Positions 19,134 through 27,008 of a stretch of DNA of 37,777 bases are shown in pieces. Under the pieces are notes generated by a model. It was not told where the DNA came from and did not search any database. It worked only from the letters and a program-made list of their open reading frames with translations. This stretch comes from Eubacterium sp. GTDB lineage: Bacteria > Bacillota > Clostridia > Lachnospirales > Lachnospiraceae. The position numbers and the translations under genes were made by a program. The stretch covers positions 1 through 37,777 of the forward strand of contig JAFUPY010000051.1 in assembly GCA_017472565.1 (NCBI GenBank). The letters are read 5' to 3'. Each line of letters opens with the position of its first letter. The first letter of the stretch is position 1.

Positions 19134-19427
19134 AAAAAACGCCGAACTCACAATCCCAAAAAGGGACCGGAAATCCGGCGGTACCACCCTGATTTGCATG
19201 CGAAATACACATACACACTCAAAATCTTTAACGCAGATTGTACGTGGCAGTTTTCATGCCAGACTCAAAGGGCAGGTTCCAAACACTTCCGGCAAGAACC
19301 TCCCAGCTATGGTTCTCTCTCTGGAGCCTTTCATGAATGTACTAATCCTTATCAACGTCTTTTTCATATATATTGGGATTCATTTGCACATTTCAACACG
19401 GCAAATGCCAACCGTTCGTTTTTTCTC
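19134..19427 (-). promoter_or_regulatory. Proline T-box riboswitch leader of proS
   Basis: The minus strand carries the conserved T-box AGGGTGGTACCGCC (19190-19177), followed by a terminator: CGCCGGA (19180-19174) pairs with TTCGGCG (19146-19140) with an inner TCCC/GGGA, then six T residues. In stem I the specifier follows GGAA and reads CCT (19276-19274), a proline codon. The TGGT in the antiterminator bulge would pair with a tRNA 3' end ACCA, consistent with the A discriminator base of bacterial tRNA-Pro. Uncharged tRNA-Pro should therefore switch proS on. Confidence 0.95.
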
Positions 19428-21021: not shown

Positions 21022-21711
21022 TTAGAGTTTAAAACGATATCCCACACCCCAGATTGTCTCAATATACTGAGGTTTTGCTGTGTTAAATTCAATCTTTTCA
21101 CGAATCTTTTTGATATGTACCGTTACTGTGGCAATATCACCAATGGATTCCATATCCCAAATTTTACTGAACAGTTCCTCCTTAGTGTAAACATGATTTG
21201 GATTCTGCGCAAGGAAGGTAAGCAGATCAAACTCTTTGGTGGTGAACTGTTTTTCCTCGTCATTGACCCAAACGCGGCGAGCTGTTTTGTCAATGCGGAT
21301 ACCGCGAATCTCAATCATTTCATTTTCCTGCACATTGCTGGAAATCAGTCTCTCGTATCTTGCCAGATGGGCTTTTACACGGGCAACCAGCTCACTTGGG
21401 GAAAACGGTTTTGTAATGTAATCATCCGCGCCTAAGCCTAACCCTCTGATCTTGTCGATATCGTCTTTTTTCGCAGACACCATCAGGATTGGGGTATTCT
21501 TCACCTCGCGGATACGTTTGCAGATTTCAAATCCGTCCACGCCAGGAAGCATCAGATCCAGAATATACATATCATAATCCTGGCTCATGGCTCTTTCCAA
21601 GCCAGTGTCGCCTCGTGTCTCTATCTCTACTTCAAATCCGCTCAGTTCCAGATAATCCTTCTCAAGGTCTGCAATCGCTTCTTCATCTTCAATAATCAAA
21701 ATCTTACTCAT
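21022..21711 (-). CDS. OmpR/PhoB-family response regulator
   Basis: A 229-residue regulator. Receiver domain about 1-118 with E8/D9, phospho-acceptor D52 (YILDLMLPGVDG) and the ITKPF lysine. The winged helix-turn-helix output domain about 130-229 has the usual TTKEFDLLTFLAQNPNHVYTKEEL, VTVHIKKIREKI and WGVGYRF pattern. Its ATG overlaps the end of the sensor kinase gene by 8 bases, so the two are co-expressed. It probably binds tandem sites near promoters, possibly its own. Confidence 0.94.
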   Translation of the reverse strand: MSKILIIEDEEAIADLEKDYLELSGFEVEIETRGDTGLERAMSQDYDMYILDLMLPGVDGFEICKRIREVKNTPILMVSAKKDDIDKIRGLGLGADDYITKPFSPSELVARVKAHLARYERLISSNVQENEMIEIRGIRIDKTARRVWVNDEEKQFTTKEFDLLTFLAQNPNHVYTKEELFSKIWDMESIGDIATVTVHIKKIREKIEFNTAKPQYIETIWGVGYRFKL

Positions 21712-23212
21712 AAGGTACCTCCTGATATTTTCTTATTACAAAATACATAATCGTTCCTGTGCCCAGCTTACTGGTAGCCCAGATCTTGCCGCCGTGATCC
21801 TCAATGATCTTGCGGACAATGGAAAGTCCGATGCCGCTGCCTCCTGTACTGGAATTACGAGAAGCATCCGAACGATAAAATCGATCAAAAATATGCGGAA
21901 GGTCTTTCATATCAATACCCTGTCCATTGTCTTCCAGTTCTACCTGAATGAAATCTCCCACATCCTTAATGCGAATATTGATAAATCCAACCTTTTTGTC
22001 CATATACTTCATAGAGTTTCCGATAATATTGGAAATTACACGCATCAACTGCTCCGGATCTGCAATGATCACCGTCTTCGGATCCGCATAATTGTAATAT
22101 GCCAATCCGGTTCCTGCTGCTTCCAGCTCCAGTCCAATCTCTTCAATACAATCCTTGAAGTAGTCCGCCACATTCAGCTTCTGGAAGTTGTAAGGAATCT
22201 TATTTGTATCAATTTTGGAATACAAGGTCAGCTCATTGATGAGACGGTCCATCTCATTGGCCTTGTTGTAAATCATACGAATATATTTTTCCTGCTTTTC
22301 AGGTGTGTCCGCAACCCCATCAATCAGGCCTTCTGCATAGCCTTTTACCGTTGTAATCGGGGTCTTAAGATCGTGGGCAATATTGCTGATCAATACGCGA
22401 TTTTCCTTTTCCGCAACGATCTTTTCTTCGGTACTCTCCTTCAGACGCTGCCGCATCTGCTCAAAGTTGTGACACAGTTCGCCAATCTCATCCTCATGTT
22501 CCGCCTCAATGGTAAAGTCCAGATTGCCATCCCGAATATTCTGCGTGGCACGCTTCAGCTTCTTGATCGGATTGATGATCCCCTTGTAAATATAAATGGT
22601 CAGAACCGCAGCTGTCAGTATCAGAATCAACACAATGCAAACACCCAAGTCAAAAATCAGCTGCTGCATCTCCGGCAAAACGCTTTCCGTGAAGGCGGCT
22701 ATGTAAATACTGCCCTGGTGACCCCTAAAGTCCACAAAGTCAATCTGCTTGATCAGCCACTGCAGATCCCCCTCCAGGAAAAAGCCGCCGTCTCTGGCAT
22801 CCGTGGCACCATAGTCTGGAAGCAGATCTGCCAACTCCTCATTGGTCACATCCAGTTCCCCATCAAAGCCATTGTAGATGATTGTTCCATCCACGCAGCA
22901 GATCAAAAATGCATTTTTTGCCTGCAATTCTTCATTTTTTTGTGCCAGATACTCCAGTTGCTGCACTCTGGATGGCATACTTTCTGCCACTTGCTGCAGT
23001 TCATCAAAGTCCGGCTGAATATACTGGTTCAGCATCTGCACCGAATTAGAAAAGAAAAAGGACGGGTCTTCACTTTCAATTCCATAGGTCTGCTTAATCG
23101 AATGCACCTGCATCTGATAAAAGCCAAACAATGCCGCACAGGCAAGGGCAATCGGCAGGAATAATATTACACAAAAAGATAAAATCAACCTTGTCTTTAG
23201 CTTCATGGACAA
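21704..23212 (-). CDS. Membrane sensor histidine kinase
   Basis: A 502-residue kinase, partner of the regulator that overlaps its end. Membrane segments at about 8-33 and 185-209 flank an extracytoplasmic sensor region of about 150 residues. HAMP follows (about 210-262), then the dimerisation domain with H280 (IAHDLKTPITTVKGYAEG), and an ATPase domain with the N box (IIGNSMKY), DNGQGID and GGSGIGLSIV. The signal is unknown. It lies just downstream of the cohesin/dockerin operon and behind a terminator, so it has its own promoter. Confidence 0.94.
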   Translation of the reverse strand: MSMKLKTRLILSFCVILFLPIALACAALFGFYQMQVHSIKQTYGIESEDPSFFFSNSVQMLNQYIQPDFDELQQVAESMPSRVQQLEYLAQKNEELQAKNAFLICCVDGTIIYNGFDGELDVTNEELADLLPDYGATDARDGGFFLEGDLQWLIKQIDFVDFRGHQGSIYIAAFTESVLPEMQQLIFDLGVCIVLILILTAAVLTIYIYKGIINPIKKLKRATQNIRDGNLDFTIEAEHEDEIGELCHNFEQMRQRLKESTEEKIVAEKENRVLISNIAHDLKTPITTVKGYAEGLIDGVADTPEKQEKYIRMIYNKANEMDRLINELTLYSKIDTNKIPYNFQKLNVADYFKDCIEEIGLELEAAGTGLAYYNYADPKTVIIADPEQLMRVISNIIGNSMKYMDKKVGFINIRIKDVGDFIQVELEDNGQGIDMKDLPHIFDRFYRSDASRNSSTGGSGIGLSIVRKIIEDHGGKIWATSKLGTGTIMYFVIRKYQEVPYE

Positions 23213-23315: not shown

Positions 23316-23333
23316 GCGCACTTATATGCGTAT

Positions 23334-23516: not shown

Positions 23517-24977
23517 TTATTCTTCCTTTTTTTCTTTCGCTTCAACATCCCCTGCGCTTTTGCCCTGTTTTTTCATCTTTACCCCAAACACGATGGTAAG
23601 AATGAGAAACAGAACTGCCACACCAGATGCACCTGCAATCAGGTACAGACTGTATTTTTCATAAAATGGACGGTCATCCTCTTCAATTTCGCCTTCAATT
23701 ACAAGGCTGTTATCAGACACTTTCACTTCTGCAAATCTCTGATAGGTTCCATCTACGCTGTCATACTTGTAGTACAGTTCTGCGCCATCCTGATTCATCA
23801 CTTTCAGCACGCTGAATTCTTCATCGATCTTCCATGCAAAAAAACTCTGATTCTGAATGCTTAAAGTCACCTGTTCAAAACCGGCGAACTGAGGATCGGT
23901 ATCATCCAATGGAAGCGGAACAATGTATTTCCCCTCGTCAATAGCTATCTGTACAAATGGATAGAAACTTTGTGTATCCTGTTCGTAAATGTAGAACGCG
24001 GAACCCGCTTCATTTGTCAGATACATTAACTGTACCCCACTTGCAGATACCAGAGCTTCGTATTCTCTTTCATTGTACACAGCCTTGCCTCTGGAAAATC
24101 CAGCCGGAATCTGCTCATCGGTAAATCCTTCGTTGATGGTATTCTCTGTGCCATTTACGGTAATCTTTTCCACCTCACCACACATAATGGTAATGTTGTA
24201 GGCTTTGGAAGAACCATTTTCTGCTGTAACTACAACTCTGGCACTGTTTTCTCCAAGTTTCAGATCCTTACCGCCAGACACACTTACCTTGGCCTTGTCG
24301 CTGGCCGGTGTGGCAGAGATGGTCACCGCAGTAGTATCTGCAGGTACTGTCACTGTATAGGAAGTGGTGTTGGCACTAAAGGCAGGAGATAAACTTCCTG
24401 GAGAAACCTGCAGACTGCTAAGCTTGTTGTTGCTGTCCTTGGAAGGATCCACATCCTGGTTGTTGTTTGTGTTACTGTTGTTATTGTTATTATTATTGCT
24501 ATTATTGTTGTTGCTGTTATTGCCTGGATTATCGGTCTGCGGAACGGTACCTTTGATCGTTCCAGATCCACCGCTAACACTCATTACCTGAAGGTTCCAG
24601 TCATAGGCATCACTGCTGCCTGCAGATACCGTGTGTGAGCCTTCTTTTAAAATCTTAAAACTCATAGAAAAACTAAGAGAGGTTGCAGAGCCATCGCCAT
24701 CACCTGCGTAAATGACACTTCCTGAACCGCCATTTGCTCCACCGGTTGCACTGACAAACTGCAGTGCAGATGGATCATAAGAGGCAACTACGGTTGCTGC
24801 ACCGATCGGTCCGGAACTGCATTTGATGGTACAGTTAACAGAAACGGTGCTGCCTACATTTCCTGATGCACCAGATACGCTGACACTGCCGGATGCAGCC
24901 AATACCGGCATGCAAAACAATGGCAGGATCAAACATATACTAACAATCATTGCACTTATTTTTCTTCTTAATTTCAT
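23517..24977 (-). CDS. Membrane-anchored cohesin-domain protein
   Basis: A 486-residue secreted, membrane-anchored protein. Signal peptide 1-28 (cleavage near VLAA-S). Residues 30-143 resemble a cohesin module: SVSVSGASGNVGSTVSVNC, ASYDPSALQFV, and a final LQVMSVSGGSGTIKG strand. An Asn-rich linker (about 150-185) leads to a cadherin-like beta-sandwich (186-266: LSSLQVSPGSLSPAFS, TVTVPADTTAVTISATP, VTAENG). Residues 270-430 form an unrecognised beta-rich domain. A single membrane helix (443-467) and a charged cytoplasmic tail end it. The start lies 12 bases after the dockerin-protein stop, and its AGGAGAG overlaps that stop. Family knowledge says cohesins bind dockerins, so the upstream product is the obvious ligand. 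Confidence 0.82.
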   Translation of the reverse strand: MKLRRKISAMIVSICLILPLFCMPVLAASGSVSVSGASGNVGSTVSVNCTIKCSSGPIGAATVVASYDPSALQFVSATGGANGGSGSVIYAGDGDGSATSLSFSMSFKILKEGSHTVSAGSSDAYDWNLQVMSVSGGSGTIKGTVPQTDNPGNNSNNNNSNNNNNNNSNTNNNQDVDPSKDSNNKLSSLQVSPGSLSPAFSANTTSYTVTVPADTTAVTISATPASDKAKVSVSGGKDLKLGENSARVVVTAENGSSKAYNITIMCGEVEKITVNGTENTINEGFTDEQIPAGFSRGKAVYNEREYEALVSASGVQLMYLTNEAGSAFYIYEQDTQSFYPFVQIAIDEGKYIVPLPLDDTDPQFAGFEQVTLSIQNQSFFAWKIDEEFSVLKVMNQDGAELYYKYDSVDGTYQRFAEVKVSDNSLVIEGEIEEDDRPFYEKYSLYLIAGASGVAVLFLILTIVFGVKMKKQGKSAGDVEAKEKKEE

Positions 24978-24989
24978 GTTGTCTCTCTC

Positions 24990-27008
24990 CTACTGCTGAA
25001 TCTGTGCAGCTTTTACAATATGTCTCTTTACCTGCAGCAAATCTAAAGAAGTAATTTTTCCATCTTTACTTGTATCTGCCGCCGTGGCATACACACCGTT
25101 TAACGAACTGGTCTTCACAATGTGTCTCTTTAACTGCAATAAATCCAGCGACGTTACTTTACCATCACCACTGGTATCCCCGTAAATCACCACAGTATAA
25201 TCTTTGCTTCCCGCACCGTTGGAAACCCGGATAATATTTCCGGTGCCCACAGTTCCGGTATTTTCACTACCGCTTGCCGTGAGAACTTTCATGCTGCCGT
25301 TTTCAGAGGCACTCAAGTTCTTTTTCAGGGTAGATGCCGATACTCCTGGCTGAATACCTGTTACGGTTGTCCCTGCAATCTTATAGGTGCTGCTGGATAA
25401 GGTTGGCAACGTCTGCGTTTGGGCACTGTTTCGAACAATGGTAATCGTATAGGTTCTCTCGGTACCGTTTTCTGCAGTCACCTTAATTGTTGCTGTATTG
25501 TTACCCACATTCAGACTCTTGGTACCTGTTCCGGTTACCTTCGCCGTAGAACTTGCCGGTGTTGCACTGATCGTTACACTGGATACACTATTTGGAACAA
25601 TCAGAGAATAGGTCTGCTCATACATACTAAAGGATGGTGTCAGACTGTATCCACTTACGGATAAGGCAGTCAGCATGTAGTTTGGATTGCTGTTGCCTGT
25701 TGGTTTCTGACAAGGCTGTCCCGGCATGTTTTTAAACACTGGAATCTTAAATACCAGGGCACTCTGTCTGGCAGTTTCATTATAAGCCCTTGCCATAAAA
25801 AGACCCTCACTGTATCCACCGCCAACATTGGTCATATACTGGTGTGTGTATAAGGTTCCTACCAGGTCAAATTTTTTCAGATACATGGTATCCTGTCCCA
25901 CGCTTACAAAGCCTTCTCCGTAATGCTGAGAGCCACCCATAATAGATGCTGCTCTGGTATTCCATGGACGATAATAAGATGTCTCTCCCTTACCAGAACC
26001 GGATGCATACCAAAGACCACGCTCTGTTGCCTCCATGGTAGAGGTCTTATAAGCACCAATATTAAAGAAGTTGTAATAACCCACATACTCTTCGCCATAG
26101 GTACTGTTGGTTCCACTGATGTTACCGCTGTCACCATCCGTTCCTTGTTCCTGCAAAATCATTGCCGCAAGAACATACGGACTCACCTTATTGGTGGCCG
26201 CTGCATTCATAATGTCATCCAGGTATGCTTCTGGCTTGCCATCATATCCTTTGGCAAGGAAGGTTCCTGTCACCATACCTTTTAAGTTATTTCGCACCGC
26301 AGTGGTATCTGCCGTTGATGCATCATAACTTTGTTTTAAAAACTGAAAGATGGTGTTTGTACCCAAAAAATTTCTTGGGTCCATGTAATATTCAATAATC
26401 TCTGTGGAGGCTGCCACCCATCCGCCGGAGTCAAACACCTTCCACTCACCAGTCTCCCAGTTATAGGCACCGTCTGCCGTAGACTTCCAGGAAGTCTCCG
26501 CAGAAGAATGCACCAGGTTGCGTCCCAGCTTACTCTCCTCTGCAATTACGGTATTCCAGTCCAGATTGGTATGCTGTGCTTCAAAGATCCAGTTTGGATA
26601 CTGCTCATGAAGCACTCGAAGGGACTGTTTATAATCCTCTGGGAATCCCTGGGATGTCAGATAGGCTTCAAACGCAGCATCCGAACTTTCAGCGGTAATG
26701 ATCTTAACATAATCAGAATGCACCCAGCCGGATACGCCATCAATTTTCAAGTTGTACCAAAGCTTGCCATTGGAGGCTGTTCCCTCACCAAGATACGTTC
26801 CTGTCTTACCATAATTATATTTTCCAAGGGATGCGTAGCTTGTTCCAGGCCCTTTACGGAAGTTAACGCCATCGCCGGTAATCATACCTGTTTTCACCGT
26901 TTCTGCATGAACCGGAATCTGATAGGTCATCACACTGGCGGTCACCACCACGAAAGCCATCGCTATGCATATGAACGTCTTTCGAATCTTTTTTCCAAAT
27001 AACTTCAC
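24990..27008 (-). CDS. Secreted glucosaminidase-like cell-wall hydrolase with SH3b and dockerin
   Basis: A 672-residue secreted protein from GTG 27008 (AGGAG 7 bases upstream), which puts a clean signal peptide at 1-35 (cleavage PVHA-ET). Domains in order: bacterial SH3 (about 40-104, GVNFRKGPGTSY), a helical region, a glucosaminidase (LytG/Auto-like) domain (about 270-400) with likely catalytic E287 (MILQEQG) and the YNFFNIGAY motif. Then a cadherin-like domain (445-526), a small beta domain (540-608) and a type I-like dockerin with two calcium loops, 611-632 (DTSGDGKVTSLDL) and 645-666 (DTSKDGKITSLDL). It probably cleaves peptidoglycan glycan strands and docks on the downstream cohesin protein. 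A longer in-frame start at 27068 is less likely. Confidence 0.87.
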   Translation of the reverse strand: MKLFGKKIRKTFICIAMAFVVVTASVMTYQIPVHAETVKTGMITGDGVNFRKGPGTSYASLGKYNYGKTGTYLGEGTASNGKLWYNLKIDGVSGWVHSDYVKIITAESSDAAFEAYLTSQGFPEDYKQSLRVLHEQYPNWIFEAQHTNLDWNTVIAEESKLGRNLVHSSAETSWKSTADGAYNWETGEWKVFDSGGWVAASTEIIEYYMDPRNFLGTNTIFQFLKQSYDASTADTTAVRNNLKGMVTGTFLAKGYDGKPEAYLDDIMNAAATNKVSPYVLAAMILQEQGTDGDSGNISGTNSTYGEEYVGYYNFFNIGAYKTSTMEATERGLWYASGSGKGETSYYRPWNTRAASIMGGSQHYGEGFVSVGQDTMYLKKFDLVGTLYTHQYMTNVGGGYSEGLFMARAYNETARQSALVFKIPVFKNMPGQPCQKPTGNSNPNYMLTALSVSGYSLTPSFSMYEQTYSLIVPNSVSSVTISATPASSTAKVTGTGTKSLNVGNNTATIKVTAENGTERTYTITIVRNSAQTQTLPTLSSSTYKIAGTTVTGIQPGVSASTLKKNLSASENGSMKVLTASGSENTGTVGTGNIIRVSNGAGSKDYTVVIYGDTSGDGKVTSLDLLQLKRHIVKTSSLNGVYATAADTSKDGKITSLDLLQVKRHIVKAAQIQQ

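What the first reader, a model, noticed from the sequence alone, without database searches (positions are those of the whole stretch)
23517..27008. Two-gene cohesin-dockerin tether for a peptidoglycan hydrolase
The sequence shows an operon of a secreted glucosaminidase-like enzyme (SH3b, catalytic domain, cadherin-like domain, dockerin) and a membrane-anchored protein with one cohesin-like domain. There is one dockerin and one cohesin, 12 bases apart, with no cellulases or other scaffoldin genes around. Cohesin-dockerin pairs are best known from cellulosomes. Here the pair seems to place a cell-wall hydrolase on the outer face of the membrane, where the SH3b and the catalytic domain meet peptidoglycan. 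The membrane protein also carries an unknown domain (residues 270-430) and a charged cytoplasmic tail, so it could do more than hold the enzyme.
Basis: partly seen in the sequence, partly recalled or inferred. Interest (0 to 1): 0.78.

Follow-up and report, generated by a model that had tools for sequence, protein, structure and literature searches.

The report
Paired dockerin-cohesin anchor for wall enzyme
Two neighbouring genes in a gut bacterium seem to encode a cell-wall cutting enzyme and the membrane protein that holds it through a matched plug-and-socket pair, and the same gene pair recurs in many related bacteria beside other versions of the holder that suggest a wider family of membrane organisers.

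Summary
Confirmed and extended. Window 27008-24990(-) encodes a secreted SH3b / glucosaminidase / cadherin-like / type I dockerin protein; 24977-23517(-), 12 bp on, encodes cohesin / cadherin-like / new domain 'X' / membrane helix / short tail. The 68.6%-complete genome shows three dockerins and three cohesins, as three neighbouring pairs with different cargo and recognition codes. In 80 titled relatives 73 hydrolases carry a dockerin; 63 of these have the cohesin/X gene downstream. Dockerin and cohesin distances covary beyond catalytic domain and X (partial r 0.31, 0 of 1000 permutations); two cross-module controls are null, a third is not. The catalytic profile's top solved relative is 6u0o_B (SagB of SagB-SpdC, recalled). 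Best reading: a 1:1 non-covalent membrane tether for a SagB-type glucosaminidase. Against a simple anchor: cohesin-X genes also sit beside dockerin-less hydrolases and LCP ligases. X has no shared Pfam or NCBIfam match, occurs in 150 of 250 family genomes, and many X proteins share a C-terminal cytoplasmic motif. Structure prediction was off; binding is inferred.

The parts
24990..27008 (-). Hydrolase gene, 672 aa from GTG 27008 (ORF open to 27068); signal peptide, SH3b, glucosaminidase, cadherin-like, dockerin
26703..26873 (-). SH3b (SH3_3) domain, expected to bind peptidoglycan
   Evidence: 7.9e-8
25704..26690 (-). Catalytic domain of SagB/autolysin-type glucosaminidase; the Glu aligned with Glu155 of 6u0o_B is invariant in 26 of 26 rows
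   Evidence: NCBIfam SagB 2.4e-6, far below its cut-off; Pfam none
25431..25673 (-). Cadherin-like beta sandwich of the hydrolase
25017..25184 (-). Type I dockerin, two near-identical F-hand repeats (TSLDLLQLKRHIV / TSLDLLQVKRHIV)
23517..24977 (-). Membrane-anchored cohesin gene, 486 aa; RBS overlaps the hydrolase stop codon
24540..24887 (-). Cohesin domain (end set by the family alignment)
24186..24422 (-). Cadherin-like domain of the cohesin protein
23706..24176 (-). X domain: unnamed, extracellular and membrane-proximal by position, built of two similar halves
23577..23654 (-). Single transmembrane helix; short charged cytoplasmic tail follows to 23520 (without the C-terminal motif of relatives)
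   Evidence: read from the sequence; a weak TM-type NCBIfam match at 445-471
23317..23330 (-). Terminator-like hairpin with T run after the cohesin gene
   Evidence: 5 such sites found in the region, 3.2 expected, so weak

Best explanation
A two-gene operon makes a secreted SagB-type N-acetylglucosaminidase and a dedicated membrane receptor. Inferred steps: both are exported by Sec; the C-terminal dockerin, whose two F-hands carry the same recognition residues, binds the cohesin of the neighbouring gene's product; this holds the enzyme to the membrane at a distance set by the cadherin-like and X domains, so that SH3b and the catalytic domain act on membrane-proximal, probably nascent, glycan strands. 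It would work like SagB with SpdC (trimming or releasing new peptidoglycan), with a calcium-dependent plug-and-socket joint between enzyme and membrane protein. Shown here: genes, domains, adjacency, recurrence, symmetric codes, covariation. Inferred: binding, location, substrate, timing.
For: Domain make-up. In 250 family genomes, 41 of the 105 dockerin places I entered had a cohesin within 700 bp downstream on the same strand (38 genomes; 2 of the 41 in one ORF); 32 of 68 genomes with one listed dockerin did. 78 of 127 entered catalytic-domain places have an X gene within 5 kb downstream. Titled records: 63 of 80 loci have dockerin plus cohesin/X gene downstream, while none of six flanking genes of the window (HK, RR, GDSL, pseudouridine synthase, metK, aroA) has a hit at E 1e-3 among 1131 ORFs of those loci (the search finds the queries themselves). 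F-hand repeats agree within a dockerin at positions 10, 11, 14, 17, 18, 21 in 59-81% against 10-26% between dockerins (101 of 135 dockerin segments could be parsed). Partial correlation DOCK-COH given CAT and X 0.31, 0 of 1000 permutations, 57 loci; DOCK-CADc 0.08 (139 of 1000), CADh-COH 0.04 (242 of 1000). 12 recognition columns give 0.264, random sets of 12 other variable columns 0.138 on average, 3 of 300 as high. 6u0o_B is the top solved relative of the enzyme.
Against: All 29 distinct dockerin-less hydrolases counted sit beside a cohesin gene, though 23 of the 29 come only from loci fetched because a cohesin or X gene was there; 6 also appear in the titled scan, which was not chosen for that. 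10 of 73 dockerin hydrolases have no cohesin gene next door (7 records titled Ruminococcus, 1 Oscillospiraceae, 2 uncultured Clostridia). CADh-CADc also covaries (0.23, 1 of 1000), so some shared history is left after the correction. The 34 other F-hand columns covary with cohesin as a group even more (0.314) than the 12 recognition columns (0.264), so the signal is not confined to the expected contacts. The 80 titled loci are the best 80 of 576 relatives and favour dockerin-bearing ones. Substrate and membrane-proximal action rest on the SagB likeness.
Confidence: 0.68

Rival explanations
1. Not exclusive of the above: the cohesin-X protein is first of all a sensor or organiser. X, the membrane helix and the acidic tail report on or position wall enzymes, and the dockerin is one lineage-specific way of docking a client; other versions go with an LCP ligase or bind wall themselves by SH3b.
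For: X in 150 of 250 family genomes at E 1e-5; ectodomains COH-Cad, COH or SH3b on the same X-TM-tail; LCP gene at 11 of 20 fetched X loci without hydrolase upstream and at 7 of 11 loci looked at earlier; C-terminal motif in 27 of 33 COH-X, 24 of 100 COH-Cad-X and 2 of 2 SH3-X proteins against 3.9, 4.0 and 0.1 expected from shuffles.
Against: No partner of the tail is known; the window's own tail is short and lacks the motif; 76 of 100 COH-Cad-X proteins lack it and tails go down to 4 residues.
Confidence: 0.35
2. The cohesin-like domain is only a structural beta sandwich; the genes are co-transcribed for dosage and do not bind through dockerin and cohesin.
For: Cohesin-like domains kept next to dockerin-less hydrolases and LCP genes; only the first half of the Pfam cohesin model matches the window protein; covariation is spread over the dockerin.
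Against: Dockerin-cohesin covariation with two null cross-module controls; symmetric codes; three separate pairs in one genome.
Confidence: 0.13
3. A reduced cellulosome or amylosome: the hydrolase docks on a general scaffold shared with other dockerin proteins.
For: A few family genomes have many dockerins (up to 24 matches among those scored); dockerin-bearing cell-wall hydrolases that join cellulosomes are reported (PMC6403190, passages seen).
Against: Three cohesin matches, each in its own protein and each beside a dockerin gene; three different dockerin codes. The genome is incomplete.
Confidence: 0.06

Closest known systems
SagB-SpdC peptidoglycan release complex of Staphylococcus aureus (PDB 6u0o; entry identity recalled, the call labels chain B 'LYZ2 domain-containing protein')
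   Same: Homologous glucosaminidase domain (9.8e-24; NCBIfam SagB 2.4e-6) working with a membrane protein; review text describes release of nascent peptidoglycan (PMC12272431, passages)
   Different: SpdC is an integral protein of the CAAX protease family (same passages); here a single-pass cohesin-X protein and a dockerin-cohesin joint
Cellulosome type I cohesin-dockerin pairs
   Same: Dockerin with two symmetric F-hands, cohesin domain, non-covalent enzyme display
   Different: One dockerin gene beside one cohesin gene, membrane helix instead of scaffoldin, wall hydrolase instead of plant-fibre enzymes
Dockerin-bearing cell-wall hydrolases in cellulosomes (R. champanellensis; 'lyticome' idea)
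   Same: Dockerin on a wall-lytic enzyme (PMC6403190, passages)
   Different: Those are said to dock on scaffoldins; here a membrane receptor encoded next door
C. perfringens NagJ cohesin and partners
   Same: Non-cellulosomal cohesin (recalled); our profile covers 4-120 of 126 positions on it
   Different: Cohesin on a secreted glycosidase (recalled); here on a membrane anchor for a wall enzyme

Membership tests
Type I cohesin-dockerin pair | Dockerin with two calcium F-hands | tested here: met
   Dockerin_1 1e-14; repeats aligned; calcium binding itself not tested
Type I cohesin-dockerin pair | Matching recognition residues in both F-hands (dual mode) | tested here: met
   positions 10, 11, 17, 18 named as recognition residues in PMC4081043 (passage)
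Type I cohesin-dockerin pair | Cohesin domain by sequence | tested here: met
Type I cohesin-dockerin pair | Cohesin fold and complex geometry | not testable with these tools
   structure prediction switched off
Type I cohesin-dockerin pair | High-affinity calcium-dependent binding | not testable with these tools
   needs purified modules
Cellulosome | Scaffoldin with several cohesins | tested here: not met
   three cohesin matches in three proteins; genome 68.6% complete
Cellulosome | Many dockerin-bearing plant-fibre enzymes | tested here: not met
   three dockerins, on a glucosaminidase, a GDSL protein and a GLUG protein; genome 68.6% complete
SagB-type glucosaminidase | Homologous catalytic domain with the catalytic Glu | tested here: met
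   alignment (Glu at chain residue 155 of 6u0o_B; that it is catalytic is recalled); invariant
SagB-type glucosaminidase | Passes NCBIfam SagB cut-off | tested here: not met
   26.9 bits against 425
SagB-SpdC complex | SpdC-like polytopic partner | tested here: not met
   neighbour is a single-pass cohesin-X protein

The most novel reading that the evidence does not exclude
X - membrane helix - acidic tail is a new family of envelope organisers in Lachnospiraceae and kin. Swappable ectodomains (cohesin for a dockerin glucosaminidase, cohesin beside an LCP ligase, SH3b for the wall itself) are joined to a common X domain and, in many members, a C-terminal cytoplasmic D-F-x-F-I-D-L-D-like motif that recruits one shared intracellular partner, so that nascent-peptidoglycan cutting and glycopolymer attachment are placed by the same inside machinery. 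The dockerin-cohesin joint would be a borrowed plug, exchangeable with extra SH3b domains on the enzyme.
Probability: 0.33. Interest if true: 0.8.

Novelty: new variant of a known kind. Interest (0 to 1): 0.64.

Why it matters
Cohesin-dockerin pairs are known mainly as cellulosome glue. Here they recur as a private 1:1 joint in cell-wall maintenance of gut bacteria, in many genomes with a single dockerin. It offers naturally diverged, perhaps orthogonal pairs for engineering, and a handle (domain X and its tail motif) on how these bacteria place wall hydrolases and LCP ligases at the membrane.

Tried and rejected
Cadherin-cadherin contact between the two proteins: within-locus identity is no higher than between loci (0.348 vs 0.339, permutation maximum 0.354). 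A conserved link to the downstream histidine kinase (by analogy with SpdC and WalK): no hit at the titled loci (search control). The DFIDLD motif as a general tag: the DNA pattern gave 45 places in 42 of 250 genomes, against 23 for the pattern read backwards (my sum of the control columns); of 12 places fetched, 6 were X proteins with the motif right before the stop and 6 were other proteins with it inside. X by solved structures: best 0.057; by Pfam: eight families, each in one of 28 rows, best 4.2e-4 (a 6-fold beta flower family); by NCBIfam: five, each in one row, best 0.014. Regulatory RNA at the operon: Rfam at its gathering scores found only a T-box elsewhere in the window.

Rows dropped: I entered 105 dockerin places and left out those of multi-dockerin genomes not fully listed (G098, G140, G157, G158, G179, G181, G220, all but one of G175) and G167; genomes such as G027 and G051 were entered in part. 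In one search I entered 127 catalytic places (121 of 122 genomes) and 144 X places (142 of 150 genomes); second pieces of split matches and unlisted rows were left out. In one search I left out L192 and hydrolase ORFs under 500 aa, and merged SH3 hits closer than 20 residues, so SH3 numbers are low estimates in both groups.
Full report
THE OBSERVATION. The first (27008-24990, minus) encodes a secreted protein with SH3_3, a catalytic domain that Pfam does not know, a cadherin-like domain and a type I dockerin; the second (24977-23517) encodes a cohesin, a cadherin-like domain, an unnamed domain X, one membrane helix and a short charged tail (signal peptides and helix read from the sequence). 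They are 12 bp apart, with the second RBS overlapping the first stop codon. A profile of 35 cohesin regions finds solved chains from 7.8e-12; of 30 listed rows up to E 0.0073, 23 bear cohesin or scaffoldin names, 4 are NagJ, 2 'Endoglucanase', 1 'Ribonucleases G and E'. A profile of 26 catalytic domains finds 6u0o_B (9.8e-24), then 6fxp, a bifunctional autolysin, autolysin E and an N-acetylglucosaminidase (5wqw); the Glu at chain residue 155 of 6u0o_B aligns with an invariant Glu. That 6u0o is the SagB-SpdC entry and that this Glu is catalytic are recalled; NCBIfam's SagB model also touches the window protein (2.4e-6, far below its cut-off).

THE GENOME. It is 68.6% complete. It shows three cohesins and three dockerins, in three neighbouring pairs: the window pair; a GDSL-hydrolase/coiled-coil/dockerin protein with a cohesin protein ending in an SPNTGD-like sorting signal (C95); and a GLUG-repeat/dockerin protein with a similar cohesin protein (C114) (the sorting-signal reading is from the sequence). 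The two F-hands of each dockerin agree with each other and differ between the three: TSL.DLL, DGR.DSI, NST.DAM.

THE FAMILY SURVEY. In 250 genomes of the family (249 genera), Pfam cohesin rings in 97 and dockerin in 95. Of 105 dockerin places entered, 41 (38 genomes) have a cohesin under 700 bp downstream on the same strand, two of them within one ORF. For one or two cohesins in about 3 Mb I would expect far fewer than one by chance (own estimate). The only other held genome of the genus (G001) has neither. The catalytic domain is found in 122 of 250 genomes, X in 150 of 250; of 127 entered catalytic places 78 have X within 5 kb downstream, and 66 of 144 entered X places have no entered catalytic place upstream.

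TITLED RELATIVES. A scan with the hydrolase alignment found 576 relatives, of which the best 80 were kept. Own profiles show: 73 of 80 hydrolases with dockerin; 70 of 80 with a cohesin/X gene downstream (median gap 16.5 bp, range -58 to 1414); 63 with both; 10 with dockerin and no such neighbour (7 records titled Ruminococcus, among them R. albus and R. bicirculans, 1 Oscillospiraceae, 2 uncultured Clostridia); 7 without dockerin, one of them (L192, Roseburia inulinivorans) with what looks like a dockerin start followed by a frameshift. Six flanking genes of the window have no hit at E 1e-3 in 1131 ORFs of these loci (control).

COVARIATION. In 57 loci with all modules, distances were compared. 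Given catalytic domain and X, dockerin and cohesin covary (0.31, 0 of 1000); dockerin with the partner's cadherin-like domain (0.08, 139 of 1000) and the hydrolase's cadherin-like domain with cohesin (0.04, 242 of 1000) do not; the two cadherin-like domains do (0.23, 1 of 1000), so some history remains uncorrected. The 12 recognition columns covary with the cohesin (0.264) more than random sets of 12 other variable dockerin columns (mean 0.138; 3 of 300 as high). But all 55 other columns as a group give 0.247 and the 34 other F-hand columns 0.314, so the signal is spread over the dockerin. Recognition positions 10, 11, 17 and 18 are named for R. albus in PMC4081043 (passages seen); the set of positions that I used, with 14 and 21 added, was chosen.

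WHAT DOES NOT FIT A SIMPLE ANCHOR. Dockerin-less hydrolases keep the cohesin-X neighbour. Twenty loci with X but no Pfam dockerin near the catalytic place were fetched on purpose: 19 of 20 lacked a dockerin by my profile, L266 had it. Among 139 distinct hydrolases the 110 with dockerin have 0-1 SH3b after merging close hits, the 29 without have 2.0 on average (p 8e-9; related sequences are not independent), so extra wall-binding domains may replace the dockerin. X also occurs as COH-X-TM-tail downstream of LytR-CpsA-Psr ligases: 7 of 11 loci and 11 of 20 (one LCP checked in Pfam, 1.9e-35); 9 of those last 11 genomes had no Pfam dockerin. In the window's own genome (C49) and in G001 an SH3b-X-TM-tail protein lies beside a clpC-like gene (gene name recalled from the sequence). 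X consists of two similar halves (hhalign probability 95.3, P 2.4e-8) and has no shared relative in Pfam, NCBIfam or the PDB. Tails are acidic (class medians 110 to 160.5 aa) and many end in a D-F-x-F-I-D-L-D-like motif: 27 of 33 COH-X (a class that includes a few with X alone), 24 of 100 COH-Cad-X and 2 of 2 SH3-X, against 3.9, 4.0 and 0.1 from shuffling (135 distinct complete proteins of 147). The window protein lacks it.

MECHANISM. I read the window operon as a private non-covalent anchor that holds a SagB-type glucosaminidase at the membrane face, near new glycan strands, as SagB works with SpdC (PMC12272431, passages). The wider family suggests that the anchor protein is also an organiser with an inside partner; that part is a proposal.

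PRIOR WORK. Dockerin-bearing cell-wall hydrolases in cellulosomes and a 'lyticome' idea are in PMC6403190 (passages). A 2024 cellulosome survey counts proteins with at least one cohesin and a C-terminal membrane helix among its non-SLH anchoring scaffoldins (PMC11557425, passages). Searches for cohesin with dockerin, Lachnospiraceae and glucosaminidase (1 paper, a rumen metatranscriptome, listing seen only), cohesin with dockerin, peptidoglycan and non-cellulosomal (11, listing), non-cellulosomal cohesins or dockerins (18, listing), LytR-CpsA-Psr with cohesin (none), dockerin with peptidoglycan hydrolase (14) and with autolysin and cohesin (8) showed no description of this operon in the listings and in the passages I opened; subscription papers are mostly not held, so this is not proof of absence.

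Noticed in passing
L011 7052-12322 and L012 1284-5596 (window genome, contigs C95 and C114): Two further dockerin/cohesin gene pairs with other cargo (GDSL hydrolase with coiled coil; GLUG repeats), cohesin proteins with sorting-signal-like ends.
   Followed up: partly
L233 5036-6724 (window genome, C49); L234 2556-4139: SH3b-X-membrane helix-acidic tail protein ending in DLEFLDI / DLEFLDLK, beside a clpC-like gene.
   Followed up: partly
L198 6958-8340: A second dockerin protein lies between the hydrolase and the cohesin gene: two dockerins, one cohesin.
   Followed up: no
L173, L179, L183, L184, L195, L202, L206, L209, L213, L218: Seven Ruminococcus-titled and three other records carry the hydrolase with a dockerin soon after the cadherin-like domain and no neighbouring cohesin; R. 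albus is reported as nearly cohesin-free (PMC4081043, passages).
   Followed up: partly
dockerin C-termini, alignment A4: 59 of 109 distinct dockerin hydrolases end in I/L/V-x-Q at or one residue before the stop codon, as the window protein does.
   Followed up: partly
L075 181-2680: Hydrolase gene of G205 lies in three frames; intact relatives exist.
   Followed up: no
L192 4545-6902: Roseburia inulinivorans record: a dockerin seems to begin, then the frame shifts.
   Followed up: no
window 21022-23212: Histidine kinase and response regulator just downstream; no relatives of them at the 80 titled loci.
   Followed up: yes
window 19159-19364 (-): T-box leader before the prolyl-tRNA synthetase gene.
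   Followed up: no
L135, L150, L281, L283 hydrolase C-termini: Dockerin-less hydrolases with Gly/Ser/Pro-rich tails ending in a short hydrophobic stretch such as SNVTIVPN, SNVTVIN, SNVTIIPQ, SDIVIIP.
   Followed up: no
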